From Verrucomicrobiales bacterium (GTDB taxonomy: Bacteria > Verrucomicrobiota > Verrucomicrobiia > Limisphaerales > UBA1100): 59,460 nucleotides of DNA. The DNA lies in NCBI GenBank assembly GCA_005809105.1, contig SYLI01000026.1, forward strand, positions 1-59,460. The letters run 5' to 3'. Shown piece after piece: positions 4,537 through 18,419 of the stretch (the stretch's first letter is position 1; every line of letters begins with the position of its first letter). The position numbers were made by a program, and so were the translations under genes. The notes under the pieces were generated by a model. It searched no databases, was not told where the DNA came from, and worked only from the letters and a program-made list of their open reading frames with translations.

Positions 4537-5862
4537 TTACGCCGTCTGATAGGAGGACATGATCATCTGGAACGCCCCCAGAATGATCGAGAGAACGAAC
4601 CCGGCTGCACCCGCCAGGAACATGTAGATGAGCCACTGGGGCACGTCCTCCATCTTGCGGGCCTTGGAGCAGTATTCCTCGTACACCACTGCGAAGGACG
4701 ACGCGGACACCGCCATGGCGAACACCACCGCCACCGCGCCCACCACGATCAGGAGAATGCCCCCCACCATCGCACCGGTGTCGCCGGTGGAAAGCACGCG
4801 CCCCATGCCCATCAGCGCCACTCCCAGCAGCACAAACAAAATTACCAGCCCCACGTAGAAGGCCATCCCCATTACGTCCTTCTTCGTCACGTCCCGGCTC
4901 AGTTCCATCGCCTCCCAAAAGCCCATCTTGTAATGGGCCACGAGCGGCACGGCGAACATCCAGCACAACGTGAGGTAGATCGGCGGCACCACGATCAGCG
5001 CCGTGCCCAGAAAGAGGCTGAGCTTGGCGAGGAAGGACATCGTTCCCAGCGTGGTGAAGAATGCCGAAAGCTGCGCCACCCCCGTCCACAGGGCCGCCTG
5101 AATCATGGCCCACGCGTCGTCCAGCGACTTGGGTTCCGTCACAACCGCCATCGCCGAACCGGCGACAATGGACAGGGCATCCCACACACCGGAGAGTTCC
5201 GCGCCCACCACGTAGAGATCGAAACGGTACACCCCGCCCCAGATGAGCAGGATTCCCGGCACCACCGACACCAACGCGATGGCCCACGGGACAACCCACG
5301 CCAGCATCAACTGGGGGAACCGGGCGCCAAACCCCATGAAAATCAGCCCGACGCCTCCCTTGCGCGAGCGTTTTTTCTGCAAAAAGAACATGAAGGCGCC
5401 TCCCAGGAACGGTCCCGCCGGCACCACCAGCAAGGCGGAGATCAAACCCAGGGGCAGGAGGATCAACGCCGCCAGCAGCATGGCCCAAGGATGCAACTGG
5501 AAGAAAATCCAGCCGTTGTAGAGACAGGTGTCCGCCTCCATCTCATGGGGCCGCTTGCGGATGTCCTCGGGCAACTCCTCCACCTTGCGCACGGGTTCGG
5601 CCTCGCCACCAGGTTGTGCGCCGGCGCCATGACCCTGGGGGGCCGGGGCCGCACGAGGCGCGGGAGGTGGAGGTTTCGCCGGGGGGGCGGCAGGGTTGCC
5701 GAGGTTGACACCGGGCACGGCATCCAATGTCACCCATCCGCTGCAGCCCTCGTACCAAGCCATGTCGGTTGGCAGCACCGAGCCTTCCGCAAGGTAGGCA
5801 TTGAGCTGGTCGACCGTGTAGGGGCCAAATTGCTGGCCCGCTCGTTCCAGATGCACGATCAT
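4537..5862 (-). CDS. GYF-domain polytopic membrane protein
   Basis: A 441-residue membrane protein of unknown role. The N-terminal 50 residues form a GYF_2 (DUF4339) domain: QFGPYTVDQLNAYL, then MAWYEGCSGWVTL. A Pro/Ala-rich linker (about 58-100) leads to a membrane region with roughly seven or eight hydrophobic segments. This GYF-plus-membrane layout is frequent in Verrucomicrobiota and Planctomycetota, where the GYF domain is thought to bind proline-rich partners. ATG 5862 begins exactly at the GYF domain, so the longer open frame up to 5997 was rejected. It is transcribed away from the small lipoprotein gene at 5958. Confidence 0.85.
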   Translation of the reverse strand: MIVHLERAGQQFGPYTVDQLNAYLAEGSVLPTDMAWYEGCSGWVTLDAVPGVNLGNPAAPPAKPPPPAPRAAPAPQGHGAGAQPGGEAEPVRKVEELPEDIRKRPHEMEADTCLYNGWIFFQLHPWAMLLAALILLPLGLISALLVVPAGPFLGGAFMFFLQKKRSRKGGVGLIFMGFGARFPQLMLAWVVPWAIALVSVVPGILLIWGGVYRFDLYVVGAELSGVWDALSIVAGSAMAVVTEPKSLDDAWAMIQAALWTGVAQLSAFFTTLGTMSFLAKLSLFLGTALIVVPPIYLTLCWMFAVPLVAHYKMGFWEAMELSRDVTKKDVMGMAFYVGLVILFVLLGVALMGMGRVLSTGDTGAMVGGILLIVVGAVAVVFAMAVSASSFAVVYEEYCSKARKMEDVPQWLIYMFLAGAAGFVLSIILGAFQMIMSSYQTA

Positions 5863-6401: not shown

Positions 6402-8180
6402 TCAGCGCTTTTCGCCGGGCTTGTCGGTGGGAGTCGCCTCGGCGGCATTAGCCCGAATGGCCAAATCCGCCCGACCAACACGCGCGCGGCCTTCCACGCG
6501 CGATTGCATCAAGGATTGCTGGGAGGGCGGCGCACTCAACCGACGCACGGTGGATTCTGCTTTCCCGCCCGCAGGCCCTGCACCACCGGCACCACCTCCG
6601 CCAAAGCCGCCCCCGGCTGTGGCCATCACACGAGGTGCCAGCGGCGAGGATCCTTCCCCCGCGGAGTATCCCGAAAACTCCACGCGCTGCTGCGTGGAAC
6701 GGTTAGTGCCTGCAACTTGGAAATAAAACGCGCTGGGCTCGGTCGAAAGCGCCGCGATGGCGGGGCCGGTCTTGTTCGAGTCTTGGCGCACCATGAGATG
6801 AATCTTGCCATTGGCGCCGCCCACGCCGTCCACCGCGATGAGATAGCGCCCGTTGGTCACTCCCTGAAAGCGCAACTCGCTCGAGGGCCCGTCGGGCACG
6901 TTGTCGTTCCACACAAGCCCGCTCCCCTGGCCAGCGGCGTCGGTGTAAACCAACGGGCGCACCGCCGCGCCAGCCGGAACGAACACCCCAAGCGTGGTGT
7001 CAAAATTGCTGCCGCGCGTTGAAACCGTCACCTCGCCGTTGTAGGCGGTGGTGGCGGTCCACCAAACCGAGCGGCCACGAAAATTAGGAAGCCCTTGCTC
7101 GACGCCTGCTTCAGGCGTCGCACGAAGATTGTGGCCGATCACCATCTGGCCCAGTTCTTGGATGGCAATGCTGTTAGCCACGTTGTCATTGGGCAGCACC
7201 ACGGGCGCCTCTGGCACGGTGGGAACAGCCGGCGGCACCGCGCCAATAACCGGACGCACTCCCCCCGCGGGCGGCGGAGCCACAGGCGCCTGCGGAGCCG
7301 GCCCCACGGCGCCACCCAGGCCTTTTTTCGGGCCGGCGGGCAGCGCCCCCACCAACGCCGAGCGGCTCACCCCCACTGCTGCCAGTGGCAACCCCTGCAA
7401 CCCCTCGGGCGCATTGGCAAAAAGCACCTTCCCAGAATAGACCGATCCGTCACGATCGCGAAGCTGCACCGTGTCGCCTTCGCGTTGCAGCACAAATTCT
7501 GCAAGCACCTGCGTGGCCCAGTCCTTTGAAGCGGTGACATCCGCTTTGGCCTGCTGTTCGTTTCGGTATAACTGCTGGTACTGTTGTCGCGACTTTTGGG
7601 AGGAGATTCCCTGCTCGTGAGCATCAGCAAGGCTGACCCCTTCGCCAGTTCTGGCGCTGGAGCGACGGTCTGCGCCGTCTTGCTTGGACGCCTCTTTCGC
7701 CGCGGCAGCCATATCTCCTTTGGCTGCGGTAGAGAGAACATGAGCCTTTCGTGCAGAGTCAACCTCCGCCCGTCCCCCAACTCGTTGAGCTTCCAAATCT
7801 GCAGCTGCAGTGCCGCCAGTGACAGTAATGCTGTTCTTGTCGGGATGCGCTGCGGATGGCTGTGGCGCCGGAGAGTTCTTGGCAACGTTACCCGAGGTGC
7901 CGCCGGGATGCTGGCGAGGGCCAAACCAGGAGAGGGTGGCGGCGATGACAATGACGGCCGCCACGGCGCTGCCCAGTGACCAACGCCAAAGGATGGCGCC
8001 CCAATCGGCTGGAGCGGCCGAAGCGGCGTCCGTGGTTGCGCGCCAGTGGAGGGCCGCTTCCGACTGCAATACGCGCCGGGTGGCAGGGTGCAATTGCGGC
8101 AGCGGGCCTTGCTCTTCCCGGCGCTTCCGGGAATAAGCCTTAAGCCACTGCTCGGCTTGGTTGTCTGCGTCGTTTGACAT
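6402..8180 (-). CDS. One-pass membrane protein with PPC-like domain, putative anti-sigma partner
   Basis: A 592-residue protein whose start lies 7 nt after the ECF sigma factor stop. Residues 1-62 are a hydrophilic, probably cytoplasmic segment. A single membrane helix follows (about 66-86, SLGSAVAAVIVIAATLSW). The exported part has an Ala/Lys-rich and coiled-coil-prone stretch (about 90-220), a Pro/Ala-rich linker, and a PPC-like beta-sandwich (about 350-470) marked by SVWWTATT, SNFDTTLGVF and YLIAVDGVGG. The tail is Gly-rich. Position and topology suggest it controls the sigma factor, but no HxxxCxxC zinc anti-sigma motif is seen, so the role is inferred. Confidence 0.8.
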   Translation of the reverse strand: MSNDADNQAEQWLKAYSRKRREEQGPLPQLHPATRRVLQSEAALHWRATTDAASAAPADWGAILWRWSLGSAVAAVIVIAATLSWFGPRQHPGGTSGNVAKNSPAPQPSAAHPDKNSITVTGGTAAADLEAQRVGGRAEVDSARKAHVLSTAAKGDMAAAAKEASKQDGADRRSSARTGEGVSLADAHEQGISSQKSRQQYQQLYRNEQQAKADVTASKDWATQVLAEFVLQREGDTVQLRDRDGSVYSGKVLFANAPEGLQGLPLAAVGVSRSALVGALPAGPKKGLGGAVGPAPQAPVAPPPAGGVRPVIGAVPPAVPTVPEAPVVLPNDNVANSIAIQELGQMVIGHNLRATPEAGVEQGLPNFRGRSVWWTATTAYNGEVTVSTRGSNFDTTLGVFVPAGAAVRPLVYTDAAGQGSGLVWNDNVPDGPSSELRFQGVTNGRYLIAVDGVGGANGKIHLMVRQDSNKTGPAIAALSTEPSAFYFQVAGTNRSTQQRVEFSGYSAGEGSSPLAPRVMATAGGGFGGGGAGGAGPAGGKAESTVRRLSAPPSQQSLMQSRVEGRARVGRADLAIRANAAEATPTDKPGEKR

Positions 8181-8187
8181 TGGCCAC

Positions 8188-8814
8188 CTATTTCTTAGAC
8201 GGTAGCACGCCGAGATTCTCCTGCGAAAAAACGGCGCGCAGGGTTCGCTCGAATTTGTCGCGGCATTTGCTCAGCCTCGAACTCACGGTCTTTTCATTCA
8301 AATCGAGCGCCTCGGCGATTTCTGCATACTGCAAATCGGCAAAGTAACGCAATTCAAGAATCTCCTGGCAGGGCCCGCCCATGCGCTCGAGAGCAAGGCT
8401 GACCTGCCGCCAGCGCTCGTCCCGTATCAGCTCCAGATCGGGGGCCGGCAACGGGCTTACAGGATCGACCAGTCGGTGGCCCGCGTCATCCACCGCGTCG
8501 ATGGAGACGGGCAACATGCCACCCCCGCGCTTGGCGGCCATCTGCTTGGCGCGATAATCGCGAGCCTTGTTGGCGGCAATGCGGAAAATCCATGTCTGCA
8601 TCGCGCTCTCGCCATTGAAGCTTCCGAGGTTTCGAACAACCGAAAGAAACGATTCCTGACACACCTCCTCGCAGTCCTCCTGCGTGAAGTCGCCGCAGAG
8701 CTGGAACACGAACCGGCCCGTGGCTGCGTAGTGAAGGTCAAACACCTCATCCCATGCCGAAGGGTCGCCTTGCCGGCAGCGTGAGATGAGTTGACGCTCC
8801 GCCCCGCGGTCCAT
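8188..8814 (-). CDS. ECF-type RNA polymerase sigma factor
   Basis: A 208-residue sigma-70 family protein with region 2 (about 20-95; EEVCQESFLSVVRNL and MQTWIFRIAANKARD, the core-binding and -10 recognition part) and region 4 (about 145-200; LELRYFADLQYAEIAEAL followed by the helix-turn-helix NEKTVSSRLSKCRDKF). Regions 1.1 and 3 are absent, as in ECF factors. ATG 8814 is chosen; an in-frame ATG at 8865 would add 17 unlikely residues. TATCCT lies 6 nt upstream of the ATG, so the message may be leaderless. It is coupled to the membrane protein downstream and diverges from the giant gene at 9050. Confidence 0.93.
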   Translation of the reverse strand: MDRGAERQLISRCRQGDPSAWDEVFDLHYAATGRFVFQLCGDFTQEDCEEVCQESFLSVVRNLGSFNGESAMQTWIFRIAANKARDYRAKQMAAKRGGGMLPVSIDAVDDAGHRLVDPVSPLPAPDLELIRDERWRQVSLALERMGGPCQEILELRYFADLQYAEIAEALDLNEKTVSSRLSKCRDKFERTLRAVFSQENLGVLPSKK

Positions 8815-8966
8815 CCGGGGAGGATAGCCGCGCGCTTCTGAATTGCCAGAATTTCCCAAGACCACAGGCGGGGAGTACCGGGCTGATGCAATCCGTCTGT
8901 AGAAGAAGAGCGTTCCCGGCCGCAGGCTTTGTCTTTCTGCGAACAGATTTGTGTTGGACAGGCAAG

Positions 8967-9002
8967 CCAGTTGCCGGAAACTGGGCTTGTACTGGGCAAC
9001 TG
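8967..9002. promoter_or_regulatory. Repeat-dense operator-like sequence between the sigma factor and the giant gene
   Basis: Three overlapping symmetries lie in 36 nt. CCAGTT-N6-AACTGG spans 8967-8984. CAGTTGCC (8968-8975) is the exact reverse complement of GGCAACTG (8995-9002). ACTGGGC is repeated directly at 8980-8986 and 8991-8997, an 11-bp step. The cluster covers a possible -35 element of the giant gene. Binding protein unknown. Confidence 0.45.
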
Positions 9003-9013
9003 CGCTTTAGAAA
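8987..9013 (+). promoter_or_regulatory. Weak promoter candidate for the giant gene
   Basis: TTGTAC (8987-8992), 15-nt spacer, TAGAAA (9008-9013), 36 nt before ATG 9050. The spacer is short, so this is tentative. A short leader with GAGG at 9041-9044 would follow. Confidence 0.3.
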
Positions 9014-9049
9014 TGGCGCGCTGCGGCTCCCGCTATGATTGAGGCAATT

Positions 9050-12000
9050 ATGCGCATGACATCCTTCGTTCCCCTTTGCTGGGTTCTGGCCACGCTGACC
9101 CTGTCGGCCCAGGAACCGCCCGCATCCGCCTTGGGCGCGGCCGCCCCCAACCCGCCCCAGCGCGGCCCGGTCACCATTCACAAGCTCCAATACACCGGCA
9201 CCGTCTCGGAGAAGGAGGCGCGCTTCACTGCCTCGATTCAGGTGGAATGCACCAACAAGGTGGAAACGGTGCTGCCGCTCTTCAGCGGCGACATCGCCGT
9301 TTTGGGGAAAGACCTTCCGGCGGGGTTGCGTCTGGACCGGGCTGGCAAAGGCTACCTGCTGGCGGTGACGCAGCCGGGCGAGTATCAGGTCGAACTGGAA
9401 ATCCTGGCCCGCATCAAGGAGACCGACCCCTTGCGCGAGGTGGAGTTTGGCGGCCCCGTGGCCACCATCAGCACGCTGCAGGCCCAGGTGGCCGGCAACG
9501 GATTGGAACTGGAGATGCTCTCGGGCACCGCGCAACCGCGCGAAGGTGCCGACAAGTCCAAGGTTTCCGGCGTGGTGGGGGCCGACAAGCGCGTGGCGCT
9601 GCGCTGGCAAAGCAAGACCACGCGGCAGGAACGCCCCGCATTGCTCACGGCCAACACGGCCAGCACCATCCTCATCACCCCGACCGTCATCAAGTACTCC
9701 AGTGTGTACAACTACGAGATCCTGCAGGGCAAACCCACCAATGTGGTGCTGACCTTCCCGGCGGGGCAGACGCTGACATCGCTCAAGACCGATATGCCCA
9801 TCCGCGACCGGCGCATCGACGTGGCGGGTGGGCGGCAGACGCTGACACTGGACTTCATCAAGCCCATGGAGCGCGCGGCGCAGGTCACGCTGCTCACCGA
9901 GCAGCCGGCCGAGAGCAACGCCACCGTTCTGGTGCCGCCGCAGCCCGAAGGTGTGGAGCGCGAGCAGGGTCAGGTTTCCGTGCAAGCCGAGGACGTGAAG
10001 GTGGAAACCACCGCACTCGTGGGCCTGCGGCAGGTAGACACGGCCGCCGGCATGGTGGGCGCCTGGCAATTCTTCAGCCGCAACCCCTTCACGCTGGGCG
10101 TCAGCCTCACCCGCATCGCGCCGGTCATCAACGTGCATGACACCGTGAACGTGTCGGTGGAGGAGAAGCGCACGGTGATCACCCACACGGTTGACCTCAA
10201 CGTGGAGAAGGCGGGGATTTACGCGCTGGAGCTCGCCCACGCAGCCGACCTGCGCATCACCCAGCTCAGTGGCAATGGTGTGGCCGACTGGAAGCTCGAG
10301 GCCGGCAAGGTGCAGGTGAAATTCGCCACGCGGGTGCGCGGCGCCCAGCAGTTCACCGTGTTGCTGGAGCGCATGTCCGACAAGGCGCCCGAGCGCGTGG
10401 CCATCGCACCCCTGCGCGTCACCGGTGCCGCGCGGCAGACGGCCGACATCTCCGTGTCGGCCACGCGCGGCTTTGAAATCAAAACCGGCGCGCTGACCGG
10501 GCTGCGCGAGTCGCCCGCCAGCGGAGCCCTGGCTTATTCGTCTATCGCGGCGGATTGGGATCTGGCCGTCACGCTGCGCCGCCTCTCGGCGCGCATTGTC
10601 GCGTCGGTCGCCAACGGCGTGGTCATCGGGGAAAACCGCATTACAGGCTTCGCGAAAATCTACTACGCCATCAGCGACCAGGGCGTGCAGCAGTTTCAGG
10701 TGCGCGTGCCCGCGGCGTGGGAGAATGTGCAGCTGGTGGGCAACAAGAAGCGGCGCGAGATCGCCCGGGAGCCGGTCGAGGGCGGCAACGCCACGCTCTT
10801 CACCTTCATCCTGCAGGAGGAGGTGTGGAACCAGTTCACCCTCCAGGTCAGCTACGACATGCCCATGTCAGCCCAACTTTCCCTGCGCGGAGCCCACCCC
10901 TTGAGCGTGGAGCGCGAGTCGGGCCTGTTGATGATTCACAGCGCCGCCAACGTGGGCGTGCAGACCAAGGCGACCTTGGGGCTGACTCGAATTGACCAGT
11001 CGGAACTCGACGAGGCCGAGCGCGCGCGCATCAGCCATCCCCTGCTCTACGCCTTCAAGTATGAGACGGCCAAGAACATCCAGGTTGATGTCAGCATCGA
11101 CCCGCACCGCGAGGAGTCGATGCAAAACGCCGTGGCGGACTATACGGCGCTCACCACCATCGTCACCAGCACCGGCGAGCGCGCCACGGCCGCGTCGCTC
11201 TCGGTGAAGAAAACCGACAAGGAAAACCCGCGCTTTCGGCTCCCGCCAGGAGCCCAGTTCAAGTCCGCCAAGGTGGACGACCGGCTCGTCACCCCCAGCA
11301 TCGAGGGCGACACCTACATCATCCCGCTTCCGGAGGATGCGGGGGTGAGCCAGACCTTTCAGGTGCTGATCAGCTACACCGAGGCGGGACCCGCGCTCAA
11401 ACACACCGGTCTGGCGGGCCTGCAGGAGAATGAGCTGTTCCTTCAGGGGCCCACGTCCACCAACATCCCCAACACGTTCAGCCGATGGACGGTGTACGTG
11501 CCGCAGACGCACGAGATGTACGAATTTGACGGCAGCATGGTGCCTGCGCAGAAACCCGCCTACACATGGACGCTGGTGCTCGAAAAGCTCCTTGGTCGGT
11601 TCCGGGGGGTGGCATGGGGCGGGGTGGTGCTTGTCGCCGCCGCGGCGGTCGTCCTGCTGCTGATTCTCAACGTCTTCCTTCGGCGCGGCTGGCGCAGTGG
11701 CCTCTTGGCCACCGGCGCCGTGGCGGGCACCCTCGCGCTGCTCTTTGCCATCACTCAACTCACGCTCGGCGGCAAATCCACTAGGGGAGATTACGCCGTC
11801 GGCTGGGCCTACCCGGCTGCGAAGGAAGTGGCGGAGAAATCGAAAATGGCCACACCCACGGACGACATGGGGCCCGATTCCTCTGGAGGCTCGGGCCGGC
11901 GGCAGAATGATCTGTCCAAGGACGCCAAGAGCGACGAGCAGCTCGACAGAACGGCCCAGTACAAGTCGCGCGAGCCCAGCCAGTCCAAGTCCGAAGGCCC

Positions 12001-15000
12001 CTCAGCCCAGCCCAAGACGCCGCCGCCGGTCCTGACTCCTAGTCCTGCCAATCCGCCGCCCGCACGGGATTTACCCGTCGCAGGCAACAAGCCCAAGGGC
12101 GGCCCCGGTGGCGGTGGATTTGGCGGCGGGGGGGGAATGGGGGGGGTACCCGGAACCGGGTTGCCCGGAAGAACGACGGTATCGCGGGCCGGCGAGAATC
12201 CCGCCGATCCCAATATGCCGGCGCCGGAGCAAGGCCAGCCGAGTGAACGCACCGAAATCTTGGTGGCGGGAATTCTCCCCACGGACTTTGAAATCCCCAC
12301 CGACGGCCGCGCCTACGTCTTCACCAAGGCGCTGAACAGCGACCGCGAATCGCTGTCCATCAAGGCGCGCATCATGAACACAGACCAGCTTCGCACGCGC
12401 CGCTCGCTGCTCCACCTGCTGCTGGTGGCCGGCGGCCTGGTGGTTCTGATTTTGGAACTGCGGCGGCACGAGCGCAATTCGCTCTGGATCACCGGCGGGC
12501 TTGCGTTGGCACTGGGGGGCGTGGGCGCGCACAGCTTCGCCCGCGGCACGCTGCACGACGTGCTCTTTACCATCCCGTGGGTTCTGGCCGTGTGCGTGTT
12601 TGTCTGGGCGGCGTGGTACTACTGGCCGCCCCGTCGCATCGCGCCCCCGCCATCGCCCGCTCCCCCCGCCCCCTTGGCGGGTGGTTCCACGGCAGGGGCC
12701 GCCACGGTGGCCGCGCTCTTGCTGAGCCTGGGACTGGGTGGCGCGGCTTGGGCACAGCCGGCTCCGGCGCTGCCGACCGACGCCAAGGCGTGGGAAAACC
12801 TGCAGCACCTGCTGCGCCTCTTGGCCGACCCGGACATCCTGCTGCAACGGCCCGGCGGCCCGCGGGTCATCCGTGAATCACAGTTGCAGGATCGCAACGG
12901 CACCGCGCACGAAATGAACCAGGACGAGCCCTACACCGGTGTCGTGGTCGGGTTCTATCAGAACCAGCAGAAGCGCATTGAATCCCATTATCAGGCCGGC
13001 CATCTGCATGGCACGGAGACCACGTGGTTCGAGCACGGCCAGCGGCAGCGGCAGACTCCGTGGCAGCAGGGCAGGATTCAGGGCGAGCAAACGACGTGGC
13101 ATCGCAACGGCCAGAAGGAATCCACAGCCGACTACGCGCAGGGCCGGCGCCACGGCCTCTACCGCGCGTGGCACCCCGATGGCAAGCTGCGCGAGGAGAC
13201 GCCCCATCAGGAGGGCGAGGCCCACGGCCTCTCCCGCCACTGGCACCCCAATGGCAAGATTGCCCGCGAGGTGCGCTGGGAATCGGGCCGGCAGCTTTCG
13301 TTTGACACCTGGACGGCCGAGGGCGTGCGCTTTGGCGAGGGCACCAACACCGTGACGCTGACGGCCGCCAACTACAAAATCACGGTGCACCGCGAGGTGG
13401 CGCTGGTGACGGCCGAATTGAAACTGACGGTGCGCGCGCCCAAGCAAAAATTCCCGCTCTTTAACGAGCTCATGGCCGTGGACGAGTTCAACTCCACTCA
13501 GCCGGGGGTGCGGCTGCTGCGGGAGGGTGCGGGCATGGTGCTGCTGCTGCCGGAGGCGGGCGCCGCCGGGGTCAGGCTCAAGTTCCTCGTGCGCCACGAC
13601 GGCGACGCCACCCGGCGCACGCTGGGTTTTGCCATTCCCTCGGCGCTGGTGAGCGACGTGGACGCCGTGCTCACCGAGGCCGACTCGGAAGTGGAGATGC
13701 CCACGGCCGTGAAGCTGGAGACCAGCTCCGGCGGCAACCAGACGCTGGTGGACGCCATCATCGGCGCGAGCGACCGGCTGGAGCTCTCGTGGAAACCGCG
13801 CGTGAAGAAGGCCAAAGAAATCGCCGCGTCAGTGTTTGTGGAAAACGCCAGCCTCGTCACCTTTGGCAACGGCGTTGTGCAGACGCGCACCACCCTTCAC
13901 TACCAGGTTTCCGAGGGCGAACTGCGCACGGCGCAGGCCGCGCTGCCCGCGGGCTGGAAGCTCATGCAGGTCAACGGCGGCAAGTCGCTGCGCAATTACT
14001 TTGTGGAAACGGTGGACGGCAAATCCATCCTCACCGTCGAACTCACCACGGGCGTCACGGGCACGTATTCCATCGAGCTCGCACTCGAACAGCCGATGCC
14101 CGCGCCGCCCGCCAGCGTGCCCTTGGCTTTCGCGCATGCCCATAACGTCAAGCGCGAGATCGGCATGGTGGGGGTGCAGTCGTTCGATGAACTCGGCCTC
14201 ACCTTCACGGCCGCCGACAGGCTAATCCAAGTGGACGCGGCGGAGTTTGCGCGCGAGGCCAAGCTGGCCACCTCCGGCCGAGTCACGACCTGGCGGTTTC
14301 TGCAGCCGGTGTTCACGCTGGTCGCCCGGCTGGAGACCATCCTGCCGGAACTGGAGGCCACGGCGCGCCACGTCACCGCCATTTATGAGGACCGGTTGCA
14401 AGTCTCCTCGCAGGTGGACTACCAGATTAAGCGCGCCGGCGTGTTCCAGTTCCGCCTGCGCCTGCCCGACGACGCCAAATACCGCGTGGACCGCGTGTCC
14501 GGCCCCAACAACCCGCAGTGGGAGGAGCGCGTGGAGAGCAACGCGCGACTGCTCCTGGTCACGCTCAGCCAGCGCACGCTGGGTGCTTATCCGCTGCGTG
14601 TGGATCTCTCCCAGCAGATGGCGGGCCTGCCTGAAAACGTGGCGGCCAGCGGCGTCCATCCCCTGGGCTTGAAGAAGCTGACCACCTACGTCGGCATCTT
14701 CGCCGAGCCGGGCGTGGAGGTGCAGGAAAAGGCTGCCAAGGAACTCAACAAGTGGACGGCGGCGCTCTTTGCGGGTGCACCCAATGCCGCCGAGGGCGGG
14801 CCGACCATCCCGGCCAGCGCCAATCCGCTGGCCTATCGCAACCTCACCGATGCGCCGGGCGCGCAGCCCTCGTGGAGCCTCTCAGTCGCCACCCGGGCGC
14901 TGGATCCGTGGGTGCGCACGGCCCAAGTGGTGAGCTGGGTGCGCGTGGGCCAGACGCGCGTGCATGGCCGCTCGCAGGTGCGTTACCCGGTGGAACACGC

Positions 15001-16762
15001 CCCCACAAGACGCTTCATGGTGCGCGTGCCCAAGCTCTTCAACAACACGACGCTCAATGTCACCGGTGCGGGCATCCGCCGCAAGGATTCCAACACCACC
15101 GACGCGGGCCATGTCTGGACGATTGAGCTGCAGAACAAGGTGCCCGTCGGCCAGACCTTCGTGCTCAACCTGGAATGGGAATATGTGCAATGGAGCACGG
15201 ACAAGAACCAGCCGCTGGAATTCTCCGGGCCGACGGCCCAGGGCAAGAATCTGCATCCCGGCCAGGTGGCCGTCGACCCCCAGGTGGAGGGCGAGGAAGG
15301 CTGGGTGATCGTGGGCGACGACGCCCGCGCCAAGCTCAACATCCAGGCCCAGTCAGTCGAGAATCTGGACAAGAAATCCTCGGCGGACCTGCCCGAGTGG
15401 ACGCTGGACGCCGCCAACCAGAGCGCCCGGCTCGTGTACTACTACCGGCTGGCCGGCCACACACTGATGATGAGCGTCAAACCACTGGCGTCTGCTTCGG
15501 TCGAGCAGGCCCGCGTGCGCCGCGCCGAGCTCGCCAGCGTCGTCACCGCCGACGGGCAGATGATGACCCGCATGGAATTGGAGATCGACAACACCAGCAA
15601 GCAGTTCCTGGCGCTGACGCTTCCCAAGGACGCCAAGGCCGTGGTGTGGTCGGTGTTTGTGAACGGCCAGGCCCGGCGGCCCACCAAGGACTCGTCGGGG
15701 TCGTTTCTCATCCCGCTGGATCCCTGCGGCGACATGGGCTCGGTGCCGGTGGACGTGGTGTACACCAGCCGCATCGGGTTCCCCAGCAGCAGCGGGCGGG
15801 TGCACATCGCCGCCCCCAAACTGGACATCCAGCTCTCCAACGCGCAGTGGCGCTTTTACCTGCCCGAAGACTTCGCGTACTCCAGGTTCACCGGCTCGAT
15901 GGATAACAAGCCGCAGCAGTCGCGCATAAGAAAGTACGCCGAAGGTGGCGAATCCTCGCACCGCGTGCACGCCAACGCGCCGGAGGGAGGCGATACCGAC
16001 GGCCTGACGATCGTCACCGCCACGACGGTCGCCTCCGGCAAGTCGGACACGTACTCCTACTCGCGCCAGCAGTATGCGCAGCAGGAGTCCGACAACGCCA
16101 AGAAGCTGCTCGAGAACGTGGAGAAGCAGCAGCTGCAGGCCGACCAGAATCTCCAAACCGGCAAGCTCTCCTCAGTGAACCAGTTCGCCGGCCAGGCCTC
16201 CCGGTCGCTCAATGACCTGCGCAACTCCGTCGACGCGCGCGATGCGGAGTATAACGGGCGCCTGATGAAGCTGGAGGCAGCCCAGAAGGAGTTCGACAAG
16301 AAACGGCGCGAAGCACAGGTGCAGCGCGAGCAGAGCGCCGCCGAGGCCTTCAGCAACCGGCGCAACCCCGGGAACAACGAATCGGGCTTCGGAGCGAACC
16401 AGCCCCCCCAGAACCCCTCGGAAGGCCAGCCGCAAGGGCAGGCTGCCGCCGTCGCACCGGCCACCTTTGACGCCGAGGAAGCCCTGCGCCAGGTGGACGA
16501 GATTGAACGCATCCAGCAACGGGTCAGCGCCAGGGTGGTCGTGCCCCTGCGAATCAACCTTCCACAGCAGGGCCGTGTCGAGGACTTCATGCAGCCGCTC
16601 AACAACAACATCAATGAAGCCATGACGGTGGAGTTCCATGCCTTGAACACCGAGCGACCCGACTGGATCACGGCCGCGCTGTGCGTGGCGGGGGTGCTGG
16701 CGGGGATCTTCTGCCTGGTCAACCTTGCGCGCCGCGGGCTGCGCAGGCCCGCCCGAGTCTAG
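9050..16762 (+). CDS. Giant multi-domain envelope protein with MORN-like repeats
   Basis: About 2,570 residues; I recognise no full-length family. A signal peptide (MRMTSFVPLCWVLATLTLSAQ) precedes a long beta-rich exported region (about 30-850). Two membrane helices follow (about 855-915), then a Pro/Gly-rich linker, three more helices (about 1117-1195) and a second signal-peptide-like stretch at about 1212-1236 ending AWAQ. Next come five 24-residue MORN_2-type repeats (about 1297-1415, pattern HG....W...G......G), another long beta-rich region with motifs resembling the first half, a coiled coil (about 2345-2445) and one C-terminal helix. ATG 9050 is chosen for GAGG 5 nt upstream; ATG 9035 and 9056 are possible. 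Divergent from the ECF sigma factor. Confidence 0.82.
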   Translation: MRMTSFVPLCWVLATLTLSAQEPPASALGAAAPNPPQRGPVTIHKLQYTGTVSEKEARFTASIQVECTNKVETVLPLFSGDIAVLGKDLPAGLRLDRAGKGYLLAVTQPGEYQVELEILARIKETDPLREVEFGGPVATISTLQAQVAGNGLELEMLSGTAQPREGADKSKVSGVVGADKRVALRWQSKTTRQERPALLTANTASTILITPTVIKYSSVYNYEILQGKPTNVVLTFPAGQTLTSLKTDMPIRDRRIDVAGGRQTLTLDFIKPMERAAQVTLLTEQPAESNATVLVPPQPEGVEREQGQVSVQAEDVKVETTALVGLRQVDTAAGMVGAWQFFSRNPFTLGVSLTRIAPVINVHDTVNVSVEEKRTVITHTVDLNVEKAGIYALELAHAADLRITQLSGNGVADWKLEAGKVQVKFATRVRGAQQFTVLLERMSDKAPERVAIAPLRVTGAARQTADISVSATRGFEIKTGALTGLRESPASGALAYSSIAADWDLAVTLRRLSARIVASVANGVVIGENRITGFAKIYYAISDQGVQQFQVRVPAAWENVQLVGNKKRREIAREPVEGGNATLFTFILQEEVWNQFTLQVSYDMPMSAQLSLRGAHPLSVERESGLLMIHSAANVGVQTKATLGLTRIDQSELDEAERARISHPLLYAFKYETAKNIQVDVSIDPHREESMQNAVADYTALTTIVTSTGERATAASLSVKKTDKENPRFRLPPGAQFKSAKVDDRLVTPSIEGDTYIIPLPEDAGVSQTFQVLISYTEAGPALKHTGLAGLQENELFLQGPTSTNIPNTFSRWTVYVPQTHEMYEFDGSMVPAQKPAYTWTLVLEKLLGRFRGVAWGGVVLVAAAAVVLLLILNVFLRRGWRSGLLATGAVAGTLALLFAITQLTLGGKSTRGDYAVGWAYPAAKEVAEKSKMATPTDDMGPDSSGGSGRRQNDLSKDAKSDEQLDRTAQYKSREPSQSKSEGPSAQPKTPPPVLTPSPANPPPARDLPVAGNKPKGGPGGGGFGGGGGMGGVPGTGLPGRTTVSRAGENPADPNMPAPEQGQPSERTEILVAGILPTDFEIPTDGRAYVFTKALNSDRESLSIKARIMNTDQLRTRRSLLHLLLVAGGLVVLILELRRHERNSLWITGGLALALGGVGAHSFARGTLHDVLFTIPWVLAVCVFVWAAWYYWPPRRIAPPPSPAPPAPLAGGSTAGAATVAALLLSLGLGGAAWAQPAPALPTDAKAWENLQHLLRLLADPDILLQRPGGPRVIRESQLQDRNGTAHEMNQDEPYTGVVVGFYQNQQKRIESHYQAGHLHGTETTWFEHGQRQRQTPWQQGRIQGEQTTWHRNGQKESTADYAQGRRHGLYRAWHPDGKLREETPHQEGEAHGLSRHWHPNGKIAREVRWESGRQLSFDTWTAEGVRFGEGTNTVTLTAANYKITVHREVALVTAELKLTVRAPKQKFPLFNELMAVDEFNSTQPGVRLLREGAGMVLLLPEAGAAGVRLKFLVRHDGDATRRTLGFAIPSALVSDVDAVLTEADSEVEMPTAVKLETSSGGNQTLVDAIIGASDRLELSWKPRVKKAKEIAASVFVENASLVTFGNGVVQTRTTLHYQVSEGELRTAQAALPAGWKLMQVNGGKSLRNYFVETVDGKSILTVELTTGVTGTYSIELALEQPMPAPPASVPLAFAHAHNVKREIGMVGVQSFDELGLTFTAADRLIQVDAAEFAREAKLATSGRVTTWRFLQPVFTLVARLETILPELEATARHVTAIYEDRLQVSSQVDYQIKRAGVFQFRLRLPDDAKYRVDRVSGPNNPQWEERVESNARLLLVTLSQRTLGAYPLRVDLSQQMAGLPENVAASGVHPLGLKKLTTYVGIFAEPGVEVQEKAAKELNKWTAALFAGAPNAAEGGPTIPASANPLAYRNLTDAPGAQPSWSLSVATRALDPWVRTAQVVSWVRVGQTRVHGRSQVRYPVEHAPTRRFMVRVPKLFNNTTLNVTGAGIRRKDSNTTDAGHVWTIELQNKVPVGQTFVLNLEWEYVQWSTDKNQPLEFSGPTAQGKNLHPGQVAVDPQVEGEEGWVIVGDDARAKLNIQAQSVENLDKKSSADLPEWTLDAANQSARLVYYYRLAGHTLMMSVKPLASASVEQARVRRAELASVVTADGQMMTRMELEIDNTSKQFLALTLPKDAKAVVWSVFVNGQARRPTKDSSGSFLIPLDPCGDMGSVPVDVVYTSRIGFPSSSGRVHIAAPKLDIQLSNAQWRFYLPEDFAYSRFTGSMDNKPQQSRIRKYAEGGESSHRVHANAPEGGDTDGLTIVTATTVASGKSDTYSYSRQQYAQQESDNAKKLLENVEKQQLQADQNLQTGKLSSVNQFAGQASRSLNDLRNSVDARDAEYNGRLMKLEAAQKEFDKKRREAQVQREQSAAEAFSNRRNPGNNESGFGANQPPQNPSEGQPQGQAAAVAPATFDAEEALRQVDEIERIQQRVSARVVVPLRINLPQQGRVEDFMQPLNNNINEAMTVEFHALNTERPDWITAALCVAGVLAGIFCLVNLARRGLRRPARV

Positions 16763-16782: not shown

Positions 16783-16806
16783 GCAGTACGGGATTAGCGG
16801 TACTGC
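16783..16806. terminator. Stem-loop at a convergent gene junction
   Basis: GCAGTAC (16783-16789) and GTACTGC (16800-16806) form a 7-bp stem with a 10-nt loop that includes the stop codon of the minus-strand protease gene. There is no T-run, so intrinsic termination is uncertain. Confidence 0.3.
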
Positions 16807-18419
16807 GACACCGGCCCTGCGGTGGCCCCAAAGGTGCGCGCGTTGTCGGCTTTCTGGGCGTCGCCCGTCGCGGCGCCCTGATGCTTCACCGCGGGGTTGG
16901 AAAACTGCCCGGTGCGCATGTCGCCGTCCTTCGAGTAGGACATGATGCTGCGATAATTCTTGCCGTCGGTGCCCGTCCACCGGTGGCCGTGGGAATGCCC
17001 GAACACGCCATCGCCCCCCTGATCCCAGCAGTGGTTGCTTCCCAGATTGTGCCCCAGCTCATGGGCCAGCGTGTGATTGGTGAGCACATGCTTGTACACC
17101 ACCACACTGCAATAGGCGGCCGGATTCCCCTCGGCAGACAGGAGCAACGCGCCCACACCCGCCGCGCCGCTGTCGGGCCCATCCACCAGAAGCGAGACCA
17201 GGTCCGCCTTCTTCTGGTCGCGCAATGACTTCACGGCCTCATCCCCGTTGAACTTGCCCAGATCCGCCCCCAGATCGGCCGCCTCGGTGTGCTGGTAAAG
17301 CTGCACTCCCACCAGATTGAGCTTGGCCTTGATGCCGCTGTTGGCAAACGCCTCGTTGACATCCGCCACGCCCGAGGCGGCAAAGGCCTTGGCCCCGGAA
17401 TCGCCTCCCTTGGCCTTCGCCACGGCCGGGGTGTAAAACATGTAGATGTCAATCGAAGCGCCTGCTCCTGAAGTGCTGCCGCCAGCCTTCGGGGCGCCCC
17501 CTGCAGTGCTGGGGGTCTTGGTCACGCCGCCCTTGGGGACGCTTGCAGCAGTGGACGTGGTATTGGTGGTGCTGGTAATGCCCGCGCCCGGCAACGGATT
17601 GCCGCCGGGCGAACTGGTTCCACCCTTTGCGGTTCCAGACCCTTTCTTCGAGGAAACGCTCTTGCCGCTGGCGGGACGGTTTGTCGGGGAGCTTCCCCCC
17701 TGCTGGCCGCGCTGGGTGCCCCGCAGTGCCGCCCGGTTGGCCGGCCCACTGCTCGCGGCCAGCACCGGCAAAGCCAGCAGGCGCGCGCGGTCGGCCAGAG
17801 AGCGCCAGCGCGCCAATTGGTAGGCCACCGGCACCGCGTTGCCTTTCTCGTCCCGGATGCTGGCGGGCTGCTTCCCCGCAGGAGGTTCGCATGCCATGTC
17901 CACCAGCGCGCGGTCCACCTCGAAGATGCAATGGACTCCGTCGGGAGTGGGCGTGATTTGAAAGAGCGATCCATCTGCCAGCAGGACGCGGCCGGAGAGT
18001 TTGTCGTCCACGGTGGTGAGGGTCACCCGGCTCTCAGGCAATCCCTCCAGCGTGCCATGCGTGATGGTGGCCACCGGGTTCTCTTCGCGGCTTGTGAGGA
18101 CGAGGGTGAACAGCCCGCGGCCGGGCAACGCGAGGGTCACGCGGCCATTGCCATGCGACAGGGTGTTCAGGGCCTCCGCATGAAGGTCCACGAACTGGTG
18201 ACGCTTGGAAAATGCCTGCTCGGCAAACGTCGCCGTGGAAATGTGATCCTGAAACAAAGGCGGCGCGGAGGGAGCCTGGCGAGGGGAGGCAGCCGCAGTG
18301 GTTTCAGGCGCTTGCGGGGAACAGCTGGAGGTGATGAGCGCCAGCAATGCCAAAGCCCACGCTGCCAGCCCCGCGCGTCCCGCCACCCATCGTGCGCCGT
18401 TACCCACCGTGGTGCCCAT
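16794..18419 (-). CDS. Metzincin-type zinc metalloprotease lipoprotein
   Basis: A 541-residue exported protein. The signal region ends in a lipobox-like ALITSSC, with Cys33 as probable lipid site. A propeptide-like region (about 50-230) and a low-complexity Ser/Gly/Thr/Ala/Pro linker (about 235-315) precede the protease domain, which opens with ASIDIYMFYTPAVA. The zinc motif HELGHNLGSNH is at residues 453-463 (His453, Glu454, His457, His463), and the Met-turn SIMSYS has Met493, 30 residues on; both are diagnostic of metzincins of the reprolysin (M12B) type. Cys residues around the motif may form a disulfide. A TTGCGC/TAGTCC pair ends 6 nt before the ATG. Confidence 0.9.
   Translation of the reverse strand: MGTTVGNGARWVAGRAGLAAWALALLALITSSCSPQAPETTAAASPRQAPSAPPLFQDHISTATFAEQAFSKRHQFVDLHAEALNTLSHGNGRVTLALPGRGLFTLVLTSREENPVATITHGTLEGLPESRVTLTTVDDKLSGRVLLADGSLFQITPTPDGVHCIFEVDRALVDMACEPPAGKQPASIRDEKGNAVPVAYQLARWRSLADRARLLALPVLAASSGPANRAALRGTQRGQQGGSSPTNRPASGKSVSSKKGSGTAKGGTSSPGGNPLPGAGITSTTNTTSTAASVPKGGVTKTPSTAGGAPKAGGSTSGAGASIDIYMFYTPAVAKAKGGDSGAKAFAASGVADVNEAFANSGIKAKLNLVGVQLYQHTEAADLGADLGKFNGDEAVKSLRDQKKADLVSLLVDGPDSGAAGVGALLLSAEGNPAAYCSVVVYKHVLTNHTLAHELGHNLGSNHCWDQGGDGVFGHSHGHRWTGTDGKNYRSIMSYSKDGDMRTGQFSNPAVKHQGAATGDAQKADNARTFGATAGPVSQYR

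What the first reader, a model, noticed from the sequence alone, without database searches (positions are those of the whole stretch)
6402..16762. Possible undescribed envelope module: ECF sigma factor, PPC-domain membrane protein and a divergent giant protein
Seen: a 208-residue ECF sigma factor and a 592-residue one-pass membrane protein are separated by 7 nt, and a protein of about 2,570 residues is transcribed in the other direction from a 235-nt gap filled with repeats. The membrane protein has a short cytoplasmic head, one helix, a coiled-coil-like stalk and an exported PPC-like domain. Known: ECF factors are usually held by a membrane anti-sigma factor encoded next to them. Inference: the PPC protein senses the envelope or an external ligand and frees the sigma factor to express the giant surface protein. 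The head lacks the usual zinc anti-sigma motif, so it may be a new anti-sigma class.
Basis: partly seen in the sequence, partly recalled or inferred. Interest (0 to 1): 0.7.

Follow-up and report, generated by a model that had tools for sequence, protein, structure and literature searches.

The report
Sigma-factor switch for giant envelope protein
In a poorly known group of environmental bacteria, an alternative sigma factor and its membrane partner sit beside a giant envelope-protein gene, and a shared promoter sequence suggests that they switch on that gene together with distant genes for other large exported proteins resembling animal protease-trap and inter-alpha-inhibitor proteins.

Summary
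In 80 relatives the sigma gene is followed by the membrane-protein gene in 78. All 22 loci with the divergent giant gene carry an ECF-type promoter (consensus GGGAG[C/T]-N16-17-CGTCT[A/G]) pointing at it; in this window it is at 8871-8899. An order-wide search with the motif alone gave 36 hits in 34 of 320 genomes and none for the reversed control. Genes just downstream include giants, VIT-VWA (inter-alpha-trypsin-like) proteins, alpha-2-macroglobulins and DUF4139 proteins. The window's own genome has it 6 nt before an unlinked VIT-VWA gene. 32 of the 34 motif genomes carry this sigma factor (143 of 320 overall; p=1.6e-10). The membrane protein has a zinc-free two-helix head, one membrane helix and a conserved beta ectodomain; PPC is an insertion found in two genera only. 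Most likely: a membrane-anchored anti-sigma/ECF pair controlling a regulon of large exported proteins. That this sigma reads the motif, and that the head binds it, is inferred. Known kind of switch, undescribed family and regulon.

The parts
8188..8814 (-). ECF sigma factor, 208 aa (regions 2 and 4), start ATG at 8814
   Evidence: TIGR02937 E 1.6e-25, PF04542/PF08281/PF07638; relatives start at the same residue
6402..8180 (-). membrane partner (candidate anti-sigma factor), 592 aa: head 1-~45, membrane helix 62-80, low-complexity stretch, conserved DGSVY segment, PPC-like insert ~330-465, conserved FxVxGTN beta segment
9035..16762 (+). giant exported membrane protein, 2,575 aa: signal peptide, ectodomain A (~45-840), internal membrane helices 864-1238, MORN_2-like repeats about 1290-1440, ectodomain B (~1440-2290, 24% identical to A), C-terminal helix 2544-2562
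   Evidence: AlphaFold model of residues 26-862
8871..8899 (+). ECF-type promoter directed at the giant gene: GGGAGT-N17-CGTCTG
   Evidence: boxes kept in the sister species G001 while the spacer differs
8821..8849 (-). promoter-like element of the sigma gene: CTGGCAATT...TATCCT, -10 box 6 nt before the ATG (predicted leaderless mRNA)
16794..18419 (-). M12B-type metalloprotease gene, convergent with the giant gene; conserved neighbour in the family
   Evidence: PF13688 E 4e-15; same place in G001, G005, G007, G011, G013

Best explanation
This is an ECF sigma factor with a co-transcribed, membrane-anchored anti-sigma factor, and the divergent giant gene is one of its direct targets. The sigma gene is read from its own conserved promoter, which yields an almost leaderless mRNA (inferred). 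The membrane protein holds the sigma factor with a short two-helix cytoplasmic head (inferred) and senses the envelope with a beta-rich ectodomain (inferred). When a signal breaks that hold, presumably by proteolysis as in known systems (inferred), the sigma factor directs RNA polymerase to promoters GGGAG[C/T]-N16-17-CGTCT[A/G]. These lie in front of the giant gene and in front of unlinked genes for VIT-VWA proteins, alpha-2-macroglobulins and DUF4139 proteins (the motif and its location are shown; that this sigma reads it is inferred). The output looks like an envelope-protection programme of very large exported beta-sandwich proteins (inferred).
For: Membrane partner directly downstream in 78 of 80 sigma loci (one further locus ends at a contig end). 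Divergent giant in at least 22 of 80 and in G001, G005, G007, G011, G013, G026, G033 among near relatives. Motif directed at the giant in 22/22 such loci, including two where the giant lies 1.5 and 5 kb from sigma. Order-wide motif-only search: 36 hits in 34/320 genomes, 0 reversed-control hits; outside the order 4 hits against 2 control hits. Downstream genes fall mainly into four exported families. 31 of 37 VIT-VWA orthologues have the motif in strict form, mostly 6-7 nt before the start. Motif genomes carry this sigma in 32/34 cases against 143/320 overall, p=1.6e-10; unlinked hits alone 24/26, p=2.4e-7; within one genus 8/8, p=1.2e-5. An A2M gene lies next to this sigma in G003, G009, G019 and L113. 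Predicted sigma+head: head helices at high confidence; full-length matches are SigW with RsiW and CnrH with CnrY.
Against: Several motif-bearing VIT-VWA genes lie in genomes where this sigma was not found (G004, G012, G017, G045, G056; G004 is 95% complete), and G032 has a giant without it, so another ECF factor could read the motif. Near-clade giants with an N-terminal extension (L056-L058, L060, L061, L063, L065, L066) lack the motif although most of those genomes have the sigma. Most sigma loci are not next to a giant, and in G010/G014 the giant is gone while sigma and partner remain. The head has no sequence match to any solved anti-sigma factor. The sigma gene itself is mostly preceded by a different promoter, so autoregulation, common for ECF factors, is not evident outside one genus.
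Confidence: 0.72

Rival explanations
1. The promoter motif and its regulon are real, but another ECF sigma factor of the same genomes reads it; the sigma gene next to the giant is a neighbour with other targets.
For: Motif-bearing VIT-VWA genes in genomes without a detected copy of this sigma; the sigma gene has a different promoter; these genomes hold several ECF factors.
Against: 32 of 34 motif genomes carry this sigma (p=1.6e-10) and the association holds for unlinked targets and within one genus; both the giant and A2M, two motif-bearing families, are found physically next to it. Most sigma-negative cases are incomplete assemblies.
Confidence: 0.18
2. The membrane protein is not an anti-sigma factor but a positive co-factor, or an unrelated envelope protein that is only co-transcribed with the sigma factor.
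For: No sequence match to known anti-sigma domains; binding not tested; G013 keeps the sigma without an intact partner.
Against: Pairing in 78 of 80 loci over an order, conserved head/helix/ectodomain layout, and single-pass membrane partners next to ECF genes are the classic anti-sigma layout (review PMC8103513).
Confidence: 0.12
3. The three genes are neighbours by chance or shared descent with no regulatory link.
For: Most sigma loci lack an adjacent giant.
Against: The promoter motif stays with the giant even when sigma is 1.5-5 kb away, boxes are kept while spacers change, and the same motif is in front of unlinked exported-protein genes.
Confidence: 0.04

Closest known systems
ECF sigma / class II anti-sigma pairs (CnrH-CnrY-CnrX; EcfG-NepR)
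   Same: ECF sigma with a short, zinc-free, two-helix cytoplasmic inhibitor; CnrY is membrane-anchored; the sigma in the model matches CnrH as bound to CnrY (Z 13.1, rmsd 3.8 A, 153 residues)
   Different: No sequence similarity to CnrY or NepR found; ectodomain, targets and phylum differ; no CnrX-like sensor gene noticed
RpoE-RseA and SigW-RsiW (class I anti-sigma, regulated proteolysis)
   Same: Operon of ECF sigma plus single-pass membrane inhibitor controlling envelope genes; top full-length structural match is SigW bound to RsiW (Z 14.5, rmsd 4.5 A, 157 residues)
   Different: Head is two helices, not the longer class I domain; HxxxCxxC absent in 72 of 72 heads
Inter-alpha-trypsin inhibitor heavy chains / bacterial VIT-VWA proteins
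   Same: The own-genome regulon member at G000:C45 has a VIT and a VWA domain (VIT E 1e-27, VWA E 1e-26)
   Different: Bacterial, signal peptide plus proline-rich N-terminus; function unknown
Bacterial alpha-2-macroglobulins
   Same: Motif-bearing genes in G029 and G042 have MG2 and A2M domains (G029 also the bait region and thioester domains); another A2M lies next to the sigma gene in G003
   Different: Here tied to a specific ECF promoter; not checked for the common pairing with a PBP1C gene
Ribophorin I (OST1) and M1 aminopeptidase N-terminal domains
   Same: Two tandem beta domains of the giant's ectodomain, residues 176-492 of the model, match ribophorin I (Z about 15 over ~310 residues, with high global rmsd of ~20 A) and each single domain matches M1 peptidases (Z about 12, rmsd 3-4 A)
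   Different: No peptidase domain, no oligosaccharyltransferase context; resemblance of fold only

Membership tests
ECF sigma-70 factor | sigma regions 2 and 4 without region 3, about 200 aa | tested here: met
   TIGR02937 E 1.6e-25 above its cut-off; PF04542 and PF08281 above cut-off
Membrane-anchored anti-sigma factor | encoded next to and co-directional with its ECF gene, conserved over relatives | tested here: met
   7 nt here; 78 of 80 loci
Membrane-anchored anti-sigma factor | short N-terminal cytoplasmic domain and a single membrane helix | tested here: met
   hydropathy: helix 62-80 only; basic head conserved
Membrane-anchored anti-sigma factor | binds and inhibits the cognate sigma factor | not testable with these tools
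   only a monomer prediction of a natural read-through fusion was possible; interface not visible
Zinc anti-sigma (ZAS) family | HxxxCxxC motif in the head | tested here: not met
   0 of 72 heads
Class II anti-sigma domain (CnrY/NepR) | two-helix anti-sigma domain | tested here: inconclusive
   model shows two helices, 219-235 and 243-260, block pLDDT 81-94; profile search finds neither CnrY nor NepR
PPC domain (PF04151) | match to the Pfam profile | tested here: inconclusive
   no match up to E 0.1 in the window protein; E 1e-4 to 0.07 in homologous segments, below cut-off
ECF-type promoter | conserved -35 and -10 boxes with fixed 16-17 nt spacing, distinct from TTGACA/TATAAT | tested here: met
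Ribophorin I / M1 peptidase family | sequence membership (Pfam) and, for M1, a catalytic domain | tested here: not met
   only MORN_2 hits the giant in Pfam; fold resemblance only

The most novel reading that the evidence does not exclude
A previously undescribed ECF/anti-sigma family of Limisphaerales-type Verrucomicrobiota, with a zinc-free two-helix anti-sigma head unrelated in sequence to known ones, runs a dedicated regulon of very large exported proteins (alpha-2-macroglobulin, inter-alpha-trypsin-like VIT-VWA, ribophorin-like giant, DUF4139): a bacterial envelope-protection programme built from the same domain types as animal protease-trap and inter-alpha-inhibitor proteins.
Probability: 0.45. 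Interest if true: 0.75.

Novelty: new variant of a known kind. Interest (0 to 1): 0.62.

Why it matters
Verrucomicrobiota are abundant and barely studied genetically, and for almost none of their ECF factors are targets known. Here a promoter found by comparing one locus predicts a regulon across many genera and ties four families of large exported proteins, with little known about their roles in these bacteria, into one controlled response. That gives a handle on what bacterial A2M, VIT-VWA and DUF4139 proteins do together and makes the question testable with one deletion and one transcriptome.

Tried and rejected
Repeats in the gap: not found. A zinc anti-sigma head: rejected. PPC as the general sensor: rejected, lineage-specific insertion. 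CTGG-type boxes as a shared promoter of sigma and giant: first suspected, then dropped, since the sigma-side boxes were not found on the giant side. Head profile against solved structures: only unrelated hits. Whole giant as one genome-search query failed, so its first half was used. The loose motif in the own genome is not enriched over its reversed control (7 against 17), so the claim rests on position, conservation and the tighter order-wide pattern. No paper describing this family or regulon was found in the held open-access library, which is not proof of absence.

Full report
What is there. The window lies on contig C8 of a 2.99-Mb assembly whose nearest named relative is 'Pedosphaera sp. 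Baikal-deep-G217' (sigma 80% identical), a Limisphaerales-type verrucomicrobial lineage. The sigma gene (8188-8814, minus, 208 aa) is a clear ECF factor. Seven nt later begins the 592-aa membrane protein (6402-8180, minus). The giant ORF (9035-16762, plus) is transcribed the other way. The gap is not full of repeats.

Conservation. In genomes of the same family and order the trio recurs in the same divergent layout (G001, G005, G007, G011, G026, G033; in G013 without an intact membrane partner; G002 and G008 cut by contig ends). A separate scan for the sigma factor gave 80 loci from named genomes: 78 have the membrane protein directly downstream, usually within -4 to +13 nt, and at least 22 have the giant upstream. 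In three related genomes an alpha-2-macroglobulin gene sits there instead. In G010 and G014 the giant is missing and its neighbour, the M12B protease gene, now adjoins the sigma gene; a box pointing away from sigma remains in the G014 locus (L103).

The membrane protein. Its family has one layout: a basic two-helix head (consensus IExxLxAYAxKRRxxAGxPxELHPATRRLLQxEVAR), one membrane helix, a low-complexity stretch, then conserved segments around DGSVY and FxVxGTNRTL. The zinc motif is absent in all 72 heads tested. In many relatives a pseudopilin-like segment follows the helix, and the same segment occurs between the membrane helices of a giant of this family, a second link between the two proteins. 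The PPC-like domain of the window protein is an insertion between the two conserved ectodomain segments, found only in this genus and in G003. Where the partner gene follows in frame after the sigma stop codon, the natural read-through reading could be folded with 21 paired sequences: mean pLDDT 78.9, pTM 0.74, head helices at 219-235 and 243-260 with block values 81-94. The sigma part matches, over its full length, SigW bound to RsiW (Z 14.5, rmsd 4.5 A, 157 residues), CnrH bound to CnrY (Z 13.1, rmsd 3.8 A, 153 residues) and other anti-sigma-bound factors. The interface itself could not be inspected, so binding stays inferred.

The giant. It has a signal peptide, two homologous ectodomains of about 800 residues (24% identical over 864 positions, E 6.5e-39), a membrane block between them, MORN_2-like repeats and a C-terminal helix. 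Ectodomain A, modelled with 45 sequences (pLDDT 85.6, pTM 0.50), is all beta. Its middle part resembles ribophorin I of the oligosaccharyltransferase (Z about 15, high global rmsd) and, domain by domain, the N-terminal beta domain of M1 aminopeptidases (Z about 12, rmsd 3-4 A), without a catalytic domain. It is probably a non-catalytic, membrane-anchored scaffold or binding protein (inference).

The promoter. Reading the gap of many loci side by side showed GGGAG[C/T]-N16-17-CGTCT[A/G] directed at the giant. In a slightly relaxed form it is present in 22 of 22 loci with a giant, also in two where the giant lies 1.5 and 5 kb from the sigma gene, and is rare otherwise (38 hits in 1.1 Mb, 19 in the reversed control). 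It is also in front of the giants L055 and L064, which have no adjacent sigma. In the window it is at 8871-8899; the sister species keeps both boxes with a different spacer. In the window and the sister species the box lies about 135-155 nt before the start codon, farther than the 7 nt usual elsewhere.

The regulon. A tight form of the motif searched in 320 genomes of the order gave 36 hits in 34 genomes and none for the reversed pattern. Outside the order 4 hits stood against 2 control hits. The genes just downstream, mostly 7 nt from the motif, are giants, VIT-VWA proteins, alpha-2-macroglobulins, DUF4139 proteins and a few small, mostly secreted proteins. The window's own genome has a looser form of the motif 6 nt before a 797-aa VIT-VWA gene on contig C45 and 7 nt before a 180-aa exported protein on C31. 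Of 37 VIT-VWA orthologues in relatives, 31 have the strict motif and two more a relaxed one. Motif genomes carry this sigma in 32 of 34 cases against 143 of 320 overall (p=1.6e-10); for hits unlinked to the giant 24 of 26 (p=2.4e-7); within one genus 8 of 8 with 15 of 50 carrying the sigma (p=1.2e-5) (relatedness of the genomes is only controlled by the last figure, and there the giant and sigma genes are linked).

The sigma gene's own promoter. A -10 box TANNNT ends 5-10 nt before the start codon in 65 of 80 loci against 19 of 384 control genes, with a -35 box of CTGG, CTGTTCAA or CTCGCCAA type in 40 of 80 against 2 of 384. This predicts an almost leaderless mRNA and a promoter unlike that of the targets. 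In the G005/G011 genus the target-type box is palindromic and points at both genes.

A parallel system. A second, distant clade of giants (about 24% identical) is encoded in another arrangement: a different ECF gene, a VWA/YfbK-type protein with its own cytoplasmic head and membrane helix, and the giant, all in one operon, with a different conserved sequence upstream. So coupling of an ECF factor and a membrane regulator to this giant family exists in at least two arrangements.

Judgement. What is shown: the conserved neighbourhood, the motif, the genes that follow it and its association with this sigma factor. What is inferred: that this sigma reads the promoter, that the head inhibits it, what the ectodomain senses, and that the output protects the envelope. 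ECF/anti-sigma switches are a known kind; this family and its regulon were not found described in the literature searched.

Noticed in passing
L069-L087 (distant giants), e.g. L069:1619-11794, L080:917-11866: Operon of a different ECF sigma gene, a VWA/YfbK-domain membrane protein with a cytoplasmic head, and a distant giant; upstream of sigma a conserved CGTCTAAKAAA...GTGTCATAC-like sequence.
   Followed up: partly
L102/L067 (G003), L091 (G019), L094 (G009), L113: An alpha-2-macroglobulin gene takes the place of the giant next to the sigma gene; in G003 its protein starts with a cytoplasmic head and a membrane helix.
   Followed up: partly
L234, L235, L242, L243, L266 and other VIT-VWA upstream regions of the window's family: A second conserved element, GGTCAAGC...CAAAAGRCGTGAC, a short way upstream of the -35 box, possibly a regulator site or second promoter.
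   Followed up: no
L116, L141, L151, L169, L175, L178, L180 (membrane proteins) and L057 giant residues 1186-1317: A pseudopilin-like segment (NLRQIGxAAQ...NNGKLP...LADG) is shared by the membrane partner and by the giant's inter-helix region.
   Followed up: partly
L053/L110 (G013): Sigma gene without an intact membrane-partner gene downstream; the following 890 nt hold no long frame, so the sigma may be orphaned there.
   Followed up: partly
L056, L057, L058, L060-L063, L065, L066: Giants with an N-terminal extension (LINVDFG...NDFWN type) mostly lack the ECF-type promoter motif although nearly all their genomes carry the sigma factor.
   Followed up: partly
window 4537-5862 (-): Membrane protein with an N-terminal GYF_2 domain and a weak match to the GPDPase membrane domain, near the module.
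   Followed up: no
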